This document shows positions 1,869-4,527 of a stretch of 64,000 bases of DNA, one piece after another (positions within the stretch are counted from its first letter, which is position 1; every line of letters starts with the position of its first letter). Source of the stretch: Paludibacteraceae bacterium (lineage in GTDB: Bacteria > Bacteroidota > Bacteroidia > Bacteroidales > Paludibacteraceae); the NCBI GenBank assembly GCA_017938155.1, contig JAGBCD010000034.1, forward strand, positions 29,952 to 93,951, read 5' to 3'. The position numbers and the translations under genes are program-made. The notes beneath the pieces are model-generated. The model saw only the letters and a program-made list of their open reading frames with translations, had not been told where the DNA came from and made no database searches.

Positions 1869-3023
1869 TTATTTTATTAGAGTTCTTTTGATGATATCTT
1901 TAAAATTTCCTAAGAACGCATAACCATTGAATCTATTCCATATAGTACTGCATGTTCCCTCGTTCATACAAATGAAGACATTATGACCTCTTAAATCAGG
2001 AAGAGATGGATCGTATTGAGAAAACTCAGCATTTTTCCAACAATCTCGAAGCAAATTTAGTATCGCTTGTTGTTCAGGAGAAATAGGTATTTTATCAAGA
2101 TTATATATCACAACAAGCGAGGAGGGTGATAGGCTATGTAAGAGAGCCAATGCCTTACGATGCGTATCAATTGTACTTCCGTCAATAACATCAAGCTTTA
2201 GGTGTTTAATATTGCAAAATGTAGTAATATTTTGTATAAAAGGGAAATCTGCTGAAACTTCTAACCCTGCCACATAAGTCATTTTGGAATCAAAAGAAAG
2301 GGTAGATAACTCATCCTTGACAAACTTATCCCATATTTCATTGTACATTATTGCTTTAGTAAAACCATACATATCTATCAGTTTTGCGATTTTATATTTC
2401 CTTTTTGTCACAACTCCATCAAAACTGATAACATAAACCACTTTGTTGTCAAAATATTCCTTGTTACTTAAATAGAATTGATATATACAAGTTAAGGAGT
2501 TTTTATCCACTTTATTGAATGAGCTATGATATTCTTTACCATTCTTGAACTCTAAATTAAAAGTTTGGGTAAAATAGGTGTCAAATGCAGGAACAACACC
2601 AAAAACTCCTAACATGATTTTAGTTACCAAAATTATCGAAACACCTTTATTTCTATATAATAGTTCGCATAATATTGTATCAATCTGCTTGTACACCGAT
2701 ATTATATCATCATTGTGCTGAACATAATCAGGCACATCAATATTCCAAATAACATTATCTGAAATGTTATCAAAATATTTTATTAATACCTCCAACGCAT
2801 GGGGACTTCGCTGTAATAGTTCACTACTTCCACGAAGCATACCCCAACTAGCAAGATATCCCCATAGAACAAAGCAACTCTTTTCCATATCTGCTGAAAG
2901 TTTCCCTTTGTTATTCTGAAAATAGTTGTAGCAAAAATCAAATGAGGCATAACGTGAGTTTACATCATGGCGACTTAAAAATTCCTCAATACATTGATCA
3001 ATGTCGGATTTAGCATGATTCAT
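1869..3023 (-). CDS. Unrecognised 384-aa protein, two-part, behind a structured RNA leader
   Basis: No enzyme motif, Walker motif, signal peptide or clear membrane helix is visible. Residues 1-215 contain LWGYLASWGMLRGSSELLQ (about 50-68), KIMLGVFGVVPAFD (about 137-150) and KLIDMYGF near 215. From memory, not from a search, these match a widespread uncharacterised family that normally ends about there. Residues 216-384 then look like an additional C-terminal domain of unknown function (for example VVIYNLDKIPIS and GHNVFICMNEG). The gene is AT-rich relative to its neighbours. It sits between a 400-base structured leader and a secreted protease, in a repeat-rich stretch with a MITE, which suggests acquired DNA. 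The ATG at 3023 is the first in the frame. Function unknown. Confidence 0.8.
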   Translation of the reverse strand: MNHAKSDIDQCIEEFLSRHDVNSRYASFDFCYNYFQNNKGKLSADMEKSCFVLWGYLASWGMLRGSSELLQRSPHALEVLIKYFDNISDNVIWNIDVPDYVQHNDDIISVYKQIDTILCELLYRNKGVSIILVTKIMLGVFGVVPAFDTYFTQTFNLEFKNGKEYHSSFNKVDKNSLTCIYQFYLSNKEYFDNKVVYVISFDGVVTKRKYKIAKLIDMYGFTKAIMYNEIWDKFVKDELSTLSFDSKMTYVAGLEVSADFPFIQNITTFCNIKHLKLDVIDGSTIDTHRKALALLHSLSPSSLVVIYNLDKIPISPEQQAILNLLRDCWKNAEFSQYDPSLPDLRGHNVFICMNEGTCSTIWNRFNGYAFLGNFKDIIKRTLIK

Positions 3024-3425
3024 GATAAATAAGTTGTCTAATTCCCCCCCTACTCACTTCTGGCTTTTCGGGTTACTCCGTTGTCATACTCAAACATAGA
3101 CACACAAGAAAAGCGTAGACCTCGAGCTGCTTATTTACAAGTCGAGGCCTTCGCATTGCCCTAAAAGTCAAATAAACAACAAGAAACCTACGCTGGTATG
3201 AAAACACACCACACATTGAGAAACATGTGCGGTATGTGAACGATTCACACCCATAGGCATCTATTGCTTACTTTGATTCCGACTTTTAATTCTGAAAGTT
3301 GCGAAGTTTCCGACTTGTCAAATACAAAGCATCAATAAACGCTATTTAATATGTCAGAAACCTACCCTTAGAAAGGACCCATACCAAATACCTTTTGCAA
3401 GACATATTCCCTCCAGCGTAGATTC
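3024..3425 (-). ncRNA. Candidate structured RNA / long 5' leader
   Basis: This follows a consensus promoter and has no sizeable ORF. On the transcript, the 5' segment CUACGCUGG (3421-3413) is perfectly complementary to CCAGCGUAG (3196-3188). The enclosed 200 bases contain further stems: 3401-3408 with 3348-3355 (8 bp), 3225-3232 with 3209-3216 (8 bp including one G-U, 8-base loop), 3244-3249 with 3235-3240 (6 bp, 3-base loop) and 3260-3263 with 3252-3255. A 9-base direct repeat AAGTCGGAA occurs twice. Downstream, 3188-3194 can instead pair with 3112-3118 (7 bp) around a CCTCGA/TCGAGG hairpin (3120-3147). The density of stems supports a folded RNA. Whether it is a cis-regulatory leader or a separate ncRNA is undecided. 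A 15-codon ORF (3097-3050) lies near the 3' end. Confidence 0.6.
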
Positions 3426-3430
3426 ATTGG

Positions 3431-3462
3431 CAAAGGTATAACATTTTTTTCATTAACACAAA
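3431..3462 (-). promoter_or_regulatory. Bacteroidetes promoter of the structured leader
   Basis: On the minus strand the -33 box TTTG (3462-3459) and the -7 box TACCTTTG (3438-3431) are separated by exactly 20 bases. Both boxes match the consensus perfectly. The start site is expected near 3425, so the leader would be about 400 nt before the ATG at 3023. Confidence 0.75.
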
Positions 3463-3474
3463 TAAAATTTATAA

Positions 3475-3970
3475 AAGTACTAAAGGTTCATGCGGCAAGG
3501 CCGCTATTGGTGAGCGCAAGCGCTCAGTTTAGAGGACGCACATAGTGCCTACAGAGAGAATTGGTAATTGGTAATTTACAGACCTATCCGCCCTCCGTGC
3601 ACCTCACCCTAACTTAGGGGAGGAGTTTAATTGGTGATTGGTGATTATCAGACCCCTACCCCCTACGGGAAATGGTTCTATGTTTGCGCTATTTCCTTAG
3701 AGTGGTGACTCTTCGGGCGCTGCACTCGGAGTGCATTCCGTTGCACTCCTTCACCCCCTAACTTAGGGGGGAGAACTGAAATAGTGCATTGAAGTGCCAC
3801 TTGTTTCAGCAGCATAGCTGCGGGGGCAAGGTTCTAAGAGTTATAAGGGCTTGTTCCACTTTTATTTTCGCAGATTTTTTATGTAGAGGTGGTAATTTTA
3901 CTTTTTATATTTTAATATTTTTATCTTGTTTGGGTTACTACCACACTATCACATAAAAAAAAAGTGTCGA
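3475..3970. repeat. Intergenic hairpin and REP-like repeats
   Basis: No gene is seen. Short stem-loops are present: GCGGCaagGCCGC near 3491 and GAGCGCaaGCGCTC near 3515. Near-duplicated phrases (attggtaattggtaat, attggtgattggtgat) also occur. The 59-base stretch 3695-3753 recurs at 54861-54920 at roughly 80 percent identity. A short motif resembling cataaaaa-tgtgtcga occurs at 3951-3970, 4483-4500 and 54571-54589. These look like dispersed repeat families of this genome rather than regulatory sites of one gene. Confidence 0.6.
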
Positions 3971-4014
3971 ATGGTGTATCGCTCGAAAAAAATATAATAT
4001 ATACTAAGTATATA

Positions 4015-4386
4015 ACTCGTTGGCGGAATAAAAAAAATGTTCTTTGATGTTAAAACATTCCGTAAATATATCGTAACTTCATGCAGATTATTTGCAGACA
4101 AAGACGATAGATACACGAAACATATACGAAAGATATACGTTAGATATACGATAGATATACGATAGATATACGTTAGATATACGATAGATATACGATAGAT
4201 ATACGATAGATATACGATAGATATACGTTATGTTATAATTATGTCATAATTATGTTATAGGTATGGCTTACTAACCCTACTTTTCATATTTAGATTCTCT
4301 ATTGCCCACTAAAAAAATATAATTTATTCTTTGAATTATAGAAAATTGGGCCGAAGGGATTTGATTTTTTAATTCCGCCAACGAGT
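4015..4386. mobile_element. MITE-like element, copy 1 (372 bp)
   Basis: The element is bounded by perfect 15-bp terminal inverted repeats ACTCGTTGGCGGAAT (4015-4029 and 4372-4386), followed inward by A/T runs. It has no ORF of note. The same element occurs inverted at 54262-55001. The flanks share TATATA on both sides, a possible short or decayed target duplication. Inside are a variable 11-bp tandem array (4104-4235) and segments identical or nearly so to copy 2. A non-autonomous element moved in trans is the simplest reading; no transposase is in the window. Confidence 0.8.
4104..4235. repeat. 11-bp tandem array inside MITE copy 1 (12 units)
   Basis: The core acg recurs at 4104, 4115, 4126 and so on to 4225, an exact 11-base period. 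The consensus unit is ACGATAGATAT with ACGTTAGATAT and ACGAAAGATAT variants. Copy 2 of the element has 7 units, so the number varies. Confidence 0.85.
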
Positions 4387-4527
4387 TATATAATTATATA
4401 CTACCTCAATACCCCCTAAAAAATGCCATTTTTTAGGGGAGTATTTTTTGAGTAGTTGGGCAACATGGAGAGAAAATTCACTCATAAAAATATGTGTCGA
4501 ATGCATTGATTGGTGGGTATATCAAAA

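What the first reader, a model, noticed from the sequence alone, without database searches (positions are those of the whole stretch)
1869..3462. RNA-protein cassette: multi-helix leader with its own promoter plus an unknown 384-aa protein
A perfect Bacteroidetes promoter drives about 400 bases without a sizeable ORF but with at least five stems, including a 9-bp pairing between the extreme 5' end and a site 220 bases downstream. An unrecognised protein follows. Such length and helix density is far beyond an ordinary leader and recalls RNA-protein systems in which a structured RNA precedes its partner gene. No reverse transcriptase, Cas or transposase signature is present, so it fits none of the known classes I can recognise.
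Basis: partly seen in the sequence, partly recalled or inferred. Interest (0 to 1): 0.85.

Follow-up and report, generated by a model that had tools for sequence, protein, structure and literature searches.

The report
Widespread new leader RNA with terminator switch
A gut bacterium carries, in front of a gene of unknown function, a long folded RNA that looks like an on/off switch; related copies sit in front of many unrelated genes across the Bacteroidales, and I found no catalogued RNA family that describes it.

Summary
In detail: a Bacteroidetes promoter (3438-3431, minus strand), about 400 bases without a sizeable ORF, an unusually stable fold (z -5.45) and an unrecognised 384-aa ORF. It is not an RNA-protein cassette. 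The leader is one copy of a dispersed RNA family: 115 of 121 genomes sampled in the genus, 190 of 300 in the family, 16 of 148 in Bacteroidales, up to 16 copies per genome; class and phylum samples (247 each, overlapping) gave matches only inside that order. Compensatory changes support the structure (256 double-changed cells against 69 in shuffles), including a pseudoknot. The nearest ORF lies in the same orientation in 92 of 99 copies, median 82 nt past the T-run's start; the genes are unrelated (57 clusters in 92) and mostly look exported. The 5' arm of an intrinsic terminator shares nucleotides with the core helix, and no promoter enrichment precedes the gene. Best reading: a riboswitch-like transcription attenuator; the folded core allows read-through, the alternative hairpin terminates. 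The signal is unknown. No Rfam 15 family matched the core; the 35-nt DUF805b motif matches the tail of part of the copies. The 384-aa protein is one of many passengers: 1 of 7 homologues elsewhere has the RNA.

The parts
3459..3462 (-). -33 box TTTG of the leader promoter
   Evidence: read from sequence, coordinates
3431..3438 (-). -7 box TACCTTTG; transcription start inferred about 3427-3424
   Evidence: TAnnTTTG at the matching place in 84 of 102 genus copies against 41 of 510 background windows
3024..3427 (-). leader RNA (whole), one copy of the dispersed family
   Evidence: z -5.45; homologues
3106..3427 (-). part of the leader shared with genus copies (5' end to T-run)
   Evidence: alignments
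3413..3421 (-).
3188..3196 (-). P1 3' strand; the same strand can also pair inside the core (C/D) and with the strand before the T-run
3328..3343 (-). 5' hairpin AGCGTTTATTGATGCT, conserved in sequence
3311..3319 (-). helix A1, 5' strand
3137..3144 (-). helix A1, 3' strand
3300..3306 (-). helix A2, 5' strand
3149..3155 (-). helix A2, 3' strand (overlaps terminator 5' arm)
3278..3287 (-). helix B, 5' strand
3163..3172 (-). helix B, 3' strand
3245..3267 (-). helices D/C, 5' strand (GCAATAGATGCCTATGGGTGTGA), nearly invariant in the genus
3177..3201 (-). helices C/D, 3' strand
3171..3180 (-). helix E (pseudoknot), 5' strand GTTGTTTATT
   Evidence: duplex tests; coordinates counted
3126..3135 (-). 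helix E (pseudoknot), 3' strand AATAAGCAGC
   Evidence: duplex tests; coordinates counted
3142..3154 (-). terminator hairpin, 5' arm
3113..3125 (-). terminator hairpin, 3' arm
3106..3112 (-). T-run after the terminator
   Evidence: T-run in 92 of the 94 genus copies (of 102) in which the 3' arm motif was found
3047..3081 (-). DUF805b motif (RF02914), 29.5 bits, below its gathering score 35.6
1869..3023 (-). 384-aa ORF: N-terminal ~225-aa domain shared with sporadic Bacteroidales proteins, C-terminal part without match

Best explanation
A cis-acting transcription attenuator of riboswitch type. Transcription starts at the leader's own promoter. The nascent RNA folds into a long core (helices A1, A2, B, D, C around a variable hairpin) locked by a pseudoknot (helix E). 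In that state the 5' arm of the downstream intrinsic terminator is held in helix A, RNA polymerase reads through and the gene is expressed. In the other state the arm leaves helix A, the terminator hairpin forms before the T-run and transcription stops about 80 nt before the start codon. Something not identified (a small molecule, a protein or a state of the polymerase) shifts the balance. Supported by comparison: the core, the pseudoknot, the overlap of helix A with the terminator arm, the position before genes, the lack of an enriched second promoter. Inferred: that the terminator works, the direction of the switch, and that a ligand or other signal exists.
For: Structure: 57 pairs on 60 aligned copies, 96.9% of cells paired, 256 double-changed cells against 69.4 +/- 6.5 in shuffles (0 of 500) and 33-62 when slid; in 20 divergent copies 243 against 72.5 +/- 7.8 (alignment fitted to the model). 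Alignment-free: helix E own partner -15.0 against -10.2 kcal/mol for partners of other copies, 0 of 2000 permutations, n=40; one copy per genome, n=16, also 0 of 2000; helix A1 -13.5 against -4.6, 0 of 2000. More than half of helix E's 3' strand lies beyond the end of the search model. Terminator: 11 of the 12 positions in columns 265-276 pair in 76 to 100% of copies, seven of them (269-275) in 99-100%, with a mismatch at 268; its 5' arm overlaps the helix A 3' strand; T-run 92 of 94. Cis: nearest ORF on the same strand in 92 of 99, median 82 nt. TAnnTTTG in 5 of 85 T-run-to-start stretches, 4.7 expected; 3 of 85 have both boxes. Own promoter motif 84 of 102 against 41 of 510. Minimum-energy folds of the growing window leader: core at 300 nt, terminator at 310 and 320.
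Against: No RNA-seq or probing was available. The energy folds are mixed: at 340 nt the window leader's minimum-energy fold is the core again, at 404 nt the terminator; the terminator state is lower in 72 of 78 copies by a median of only 3.8 kcal/mol, in a model that cannot score the pseudoknot. The terminator stem hardly varies in the genus, so covariation does not prove it. Of 20 divergent copies, 2 had no T-run by my pattern and by my count of the printed local folds about half of the other 18 end in a hairpin at the T-run, the rest show helix E or other pairings. One measure, pairs with any two-sided change, is weak (18 against 15.6, 30 of 500 shuffles reach it). In one search the own partner of helix E is the best in its row in only 5 of 40. 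7 of 99 copies have the nearest ORF on the other strand. Genes share no obvious pathway, unusual for a metabolite riboswitch. A dual role as a released small RNA is not excluded.
Confidence: 0.7

Rival explanations
1. A trans-acting small RNA gene family: the RNA ends at the T-run and acts elsewhere; the following gene is a neighbour.
For: Own promoter motif and terminator-like end; many copies per genome.
Against: Strand bias 92 of 99 and short spacing; no promoter enrichment between T-run and gene; some gene families recur downstream in several loci (16 clusters of 2 to 11 members).
Confidence: 0.12
2. A protein- or polymerase-binding antitermination RNA (works like EAR or put RNA, recalled): the folded core modifies RNA polymerase or recruits a protein to pass the terminator.
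For: Core is highly conserved while downstream genes vary; copies inside one assembly are more alike (82.5% over 23 pairs against 73.9% over 538; nearest neighbour in the same assembly 8 of 32, permutation mean 0.75, maximum 5), as a shared trans partner would favour, though recent duplication would too.
Against: The leader has its own overlapping terminator, so a plain riboswitch suffices; nothing here tests a protein partner.
Confidence: 0.25
3. A mobile or amplified element that carries a promoter and RNA and spreads before genes.
For: Dispersed copies; presence and absence before homologues of one gene (4 of 8, or 2 of 6 without the two already known to carry it); within-assembly similarity.
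Against: Compensatory change across 12 families of the order shows selection on the RNA fold; copies keep one position before genes. In the window stretch 3020-3520 the only inverted repeat of 14 nt or more is P1 itself; target duplications were not tested.
Confidence: 0.1
4. RNA-protein cassette in which the RNA is the partner of the 384-aa protein.
For: A homologue of the protein in another family also follows a copy of the RNA (L155/L165).
Against: RNA found upstream of 1 of 7 other homologues; 57 clusters of downstream proteins.
Confidence: 0.03

Closest known systems
Transcription-terminating riboswitches / orphan riboswitch candidates (general class, recalled)
   Same: Conserved structured leader, pseudoknot, alternative terminator that shares a strand with the core helix
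   Different: Ligand unknown; about 320 nt to the T-run in the window; up to 16 copies per genome of about 2 Mb before unrelated genes, mostly of exported proteins; no Rfam match to the core
DUF805b RNA (Rfam RF02914)
   Same: Lies directly downstream of the core in part of the copies (above gathering score in L049, L058, L152; below it in the window)
   Different: 35-nt motif only; it covers none of the core and a similar stretch also occurs elsewhere in the own genome
EAR and put antitermination RNAs (recalled)
   Same: Leader RNA whose fold would allow passage through terminators
   Different: Here the core overlaps its own terminator; no Rfam match to the core
Type III toxin-antitoxin (ToxIN), retron ncRNA, omega/HEARO RNA (recalled)
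   Same: Structured RNA upstream of a protein gene
   Different: No fixed partner protein, no tandem array in the leader, no reverse transcriptase or nuclease partner seen, no Rfam match to the core

Membership tests
Any Rfam 15 family | score at or above the family's gathering threshold over the core | tested here: not met
   0 matches in the window; none on the core in 20 divergent loci at E<=1 or at gathering in 16 genus loci
DUF805b (RF02914) | match at gathering score | tested here: inconclusive
   window 29.5 bits against 35.6; L152 41.7; L058 46.7 and L049 38.8, i.e. 2 of 16 genus loci
Transcriptional riboswitch | conserved structured aptamer-like core in a 5' leader | tested here: met
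Transcriptional riboswitch | mutually exclusive intrinsic terminator | tested here: inconclusive
   arms, overlap with helix A and T-run conserved; the stem hardly varies and folds are mixed; activity untested
Transcriptional riboswitch | direct binding of a ligand | not testable with these tools
   no binding data; target genes give no common pathway
Leader-peptide attenuator | conserved short ORF of constant frame | tested here: not met
   ATGCCTATGGG ORF in 76 of 85 copies, 12 to 51 codons long, 5 without a stop in the stretch; frame-shifting extra T in 13 of 85
Type III toxin-antitoxin | tandem-repeat RNA before a ToxN-like protein | tested here: not met
   no tandem repeat in 3020-3440; protein without Pfam or convincing PADLOC match; downstream genes vary
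Retron / Cas / transposon guide RNA | linked reverse transcriptase, Cas or TnpB/IscB gene | tested here: not met
   25 of 26 Pfam families shown for 73 of 92 downstream proteins hold none of these; one protein matches PADLOC models named RT-Protease_XI, by inference through its peptidase part; only the first downstream ORF was tested

The most novel reading that the evidence does not exclude
A Bacteroidales-wide class of pseudoknotted attenuator RNAs that senses one cellular signal and switches a whole set of surface, lipoprotein and some defence genes (one contig of the viral collection has it before BrxP-BrxC), i.e. an RNA-based global regulator of the cell surface and accessory gene expression in gut bacteria.
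Probability: 0.3. Interest if true: 0.9.

Novelty: new variant of a known kind. Interest (0 to 1): 0.72.

Why it matters
Few regulatory RNA classes are known in Bacteroidales, a dominant order of gut bacteria (recalled). A leader of this size that recurs up to 16 times in a genome, before genes with no common pathway, would point to a general signal read by RNA. The competing helices and the pseudoknot give exact, testable mutations, and a covariance model can list the candidate regulon in any genome.

Tried and rejected
RNA-protein cassette: rejected, see rivals. Leader peptide: rejected. Known Rfam RNA: none on the core; the MIR7533 hits in L153 lie outside the core, on both strands, far below the gathering score, and are taken as chance. 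Phage origin: the genus pattern found 0 stretches in viral contigs, a second pattern 1. P1 as defining feature: holds in the genus, in 9 of 40 divergent copies. Structure of the 384-aa protein: single-sequence model of mean pLDDT 36, not used; no PDB relative of the family profile at E<=1; no confirmed relative in viral contigs, no plasmid match, one distant phage match (E=1e-10, 33% identity over 36% of the protein).

Caveats on counts: the 103 copies were found with a pattern, so that stretch is conserved by construction. Four of the 103 had too little downstream DNA for the strand count, which also rests on my own ORF picking (60 aa or more). Copies in A2 were aligned to the model and lean to it. 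Genome searches scored a limited number of candidates per genome (21, 8, 17, 10 and 10), so copy counts are lower bounds; the samples overlap. Exported-protein calls are a heuristic of my own (67 of 92 downstream, 128 of 449 other ORFs of the same loci). The median of 5 copies per positive genome uses 114 values that I copied by hand, while tallies 115 positive genomes. Of 92 downstream proteins 73 were given to Pfam and PADLOC. The energy comparison used 78 of 85 copies, the others lacking the arm motif or its partner. DUF805b-like counts use my own pattern. In one search, 2 of the 4 positives (the query's own locus and one that looks like L095 by its sequence) were known to carry the RNA beforehand.

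Literature: listings only (DUF805b: 0 papers; DUF805 with 'structured RNA': 0); passages seen in PMC2864571, PMC8040213 and PMC7366714. The 2017 survey of 224 candidate RNAs is not held and no supplements were read, so prior listing as an unnamed candidate is possible.

Full report
What was checked. The ORF 1869-3023 has no Pfam, NCBIfam or convincing PADLOC match. Rfam gives nothing at gathering level in the window; in the leader alone, at E<=5, it gives only the 35-nt DUF805b motif at 3081-3047, below its gathering score.

A dispersed family. A blastn search with the leader matched 87 of 101 genomes of the genus, often several times. An alignment of 30 loci (the window and 29 others) shows a promoter, a 5' end, a core and a T-run held in common, with little alignable beyond except the DUF805b stretch in part of them. 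A pattern scan of named genomes returned 103 stretches; the 80 rows printed are gut and rumen MAGs titled Paludibacteraceae or Bacteroidales, one of them Candidatus Colicola equi. A covariance model of the core (R1, 60 copies, 185 positions, 57 pairs) found it in 115 of 121 genomes of the genus with up to 16 matches, in 190 of 300 genomes and 20 of 33 genera of the family, in 16 of 148 genomes of the order at E<=1e-6, over 12 families, in 3 of 247 of the class sample, all of the same order, and only in the own genome in the phylum sample of 247; the last two samples overlap and include genomes of the order. The own genome holds 4 copies. Their downstream ORFs are the 384-aa ORF and, judged by sequence, a lipoprotein, a BspA-like repeat protein and another exported protein.

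The structure. Mutual information with correction on 85 copies put pairs of the later helices at the top. On the 60-copy alignment 96.9% of cells pair, with 256 double changes against 69.4 +/- 6.5 in shuffles and 33-62 for slid versions. The structure was derived from the same alignment, which flatters the slid control, and one coarser measure (pairs with any two-sided change) is reached by 30 of 500 shuffles. In 20 divergent copies, aligned to the model, 243 against 72.5 +/- 7.8. A test without alignment pairs each 5' strand with its own and with other copies' 3' strand: helix A1 -13.5 against -4.6 kcal/mol, the pseudoknot helix E -15.0 against -10.2, both 0 of 2000 permutations in 40 copies and again in 16 copies of 16 different genomes. 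Helix E was noticed by eye, and more than half of its 3' strand lies beyond the end of R1, so it is close to an independent test; A1 is part of R1, which found the copies. Shuffling each strand singly is a weaker test: p<=0.05 in 21 of 40 divergent and 76 of 78 genus copies.

The switch. The strand 3154-3142 is the 5' arm of a hairpin with 3125-3113, which runs straight into the T-run; it shares nucleotides with the 3' sides of helices A2 and A1. In 85 genus copies seven pairs of this terminator hold in 99-100% of copies, mostly without variation, and the helix A1 pairs (3' columns 274-282, the first three shared with the terminator arm) hold in 92-99% with many compensatory types. The T-run follows in 92 of the 94 copies where the arm motif was found. 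Minimum-energy folds of the growing window leader show the core at 300 nt, the terminator at 310 and 320, the core again at 340 and the terminator at 404, so the two are near balance. In a nested energy model the terminator state is lower in 72 of 78 copies, by 3.8 kcal/mol at the median; the pseudoknot is not scored. In 18 divergent copies with a T-run about half of the local folds end in a hairpin at the T-run. The strand GCGTAGG can pair with the 5' end, inside the core, or with the strand before the T-run; across 40 divergent copies own partners of the last pairing are slightly better than foreign ones (-11.1 against -10.2, 0 of 2000). The 5'-end pairing is general in the genus but found in only 9 of 40 divergent copies.

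It acts in cis. The nearest ORF is on the same strand in 92 of 99 copies and starts 82 nt (median) after a point 81 nt past the search anchor, about where the T-run begins. Between T-run and start the -7 motif occurs in 5 of 85 stretches, as expected by chance (4.7), and both boxes in 3, so most genes seem to depend on read-through. The -7 motif before the RNA occurs in 84 of 102 copies against 41 of 510 windows. Downstream proteins fall into 57 clusters among 92; 67 of 92 look exported by my heuristic against 128 of 449 other ORFs nearby. Pfam names in 73 of them include BspA repeats (6), PEGA (2), and single cases of SPFH, C10 peptidase, radical SAM, HerA/DUF87 and CsgG. One IMG/VR contig has a copy (70.1 bits) before BrxP and BrxC genes. 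For an SPFH gene, 8 of 101 genus genomes had a homologue; 4 of the 8 have the RNA, its model end 56 to 107 nt before the start codon by my count; 2 of these were known beforehand, so 2 of 6 otherwise. One of the others shows a TACCTTTG box close to the start instead. This suggests a leader gained and lost as a module.

The protein. Its first 225 residues match proteins of 7 other genomes among the 344 searched in the order, own included (42-48% identity; 39-44%); the C-terminal part has no match. Only one of the 7 has the RNA in the fetched stretch, in a different family and with a short variant of the RNA. No PDB relative was found and the model is unusable. The protein is one passenger among many.

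Reading. The evidence favours a transcription attenuator of riboswitch type with an unknown signal. What works like it is well known; membership in a named class is not shown: no Rfam search matched the core. The prior-art search is limited to the open papers held, and an unnamed candidate in the 2017 survey or in supplements cannot be excluded.

Noticed in passing
window 4005-4396: MITE-like element: 32-nt inverted ends (94% complementary) around an 11-bp tandem array; 29 matches at E<=1e-3 in the own genome, itself and short self-matches included, a few over most of its length. One partial match (C2:24122-24245) lies some 380 nt upstream of another RNA copy (C2:23542-23739).
   Followed up: partly
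window 3047-3081 and loci L041-L143: DUF805b-like motif by my own pattern: 18 of 102 copies have it just downstream of the core; 20 such motifs in all in these loci. A 92%-similar stretch also lies in the own genome at C18:75229-75265, away from the copy found on that contig.
   Followed up: partly
L191:5252-11676: A copy of the RNA before BrxP (835 aa) and BrxC (1151 aa) on a contig of the viral collection, which may be a bacterial or mobile stretch.
   Followed up: partly
L155/L165 (G407:C10): Short RNA variant (128-nt core) before a homologue of the 384-aa protein, followed by a BspA-like gene judged by sequence.
   Followed up: partly
loci L041-L143: Copies within one assembly are more alike than copies of different assemblies (82.5% against 73.9%), hinting at recent duplication or concerted change.
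   Followed up: partly
L161 (downstream of RNA): Downstream protein looks like an SNF2-type helicase (judged from the sequence by recall; my family scan of it failed), possibly a defence gene.
   Followed up: no
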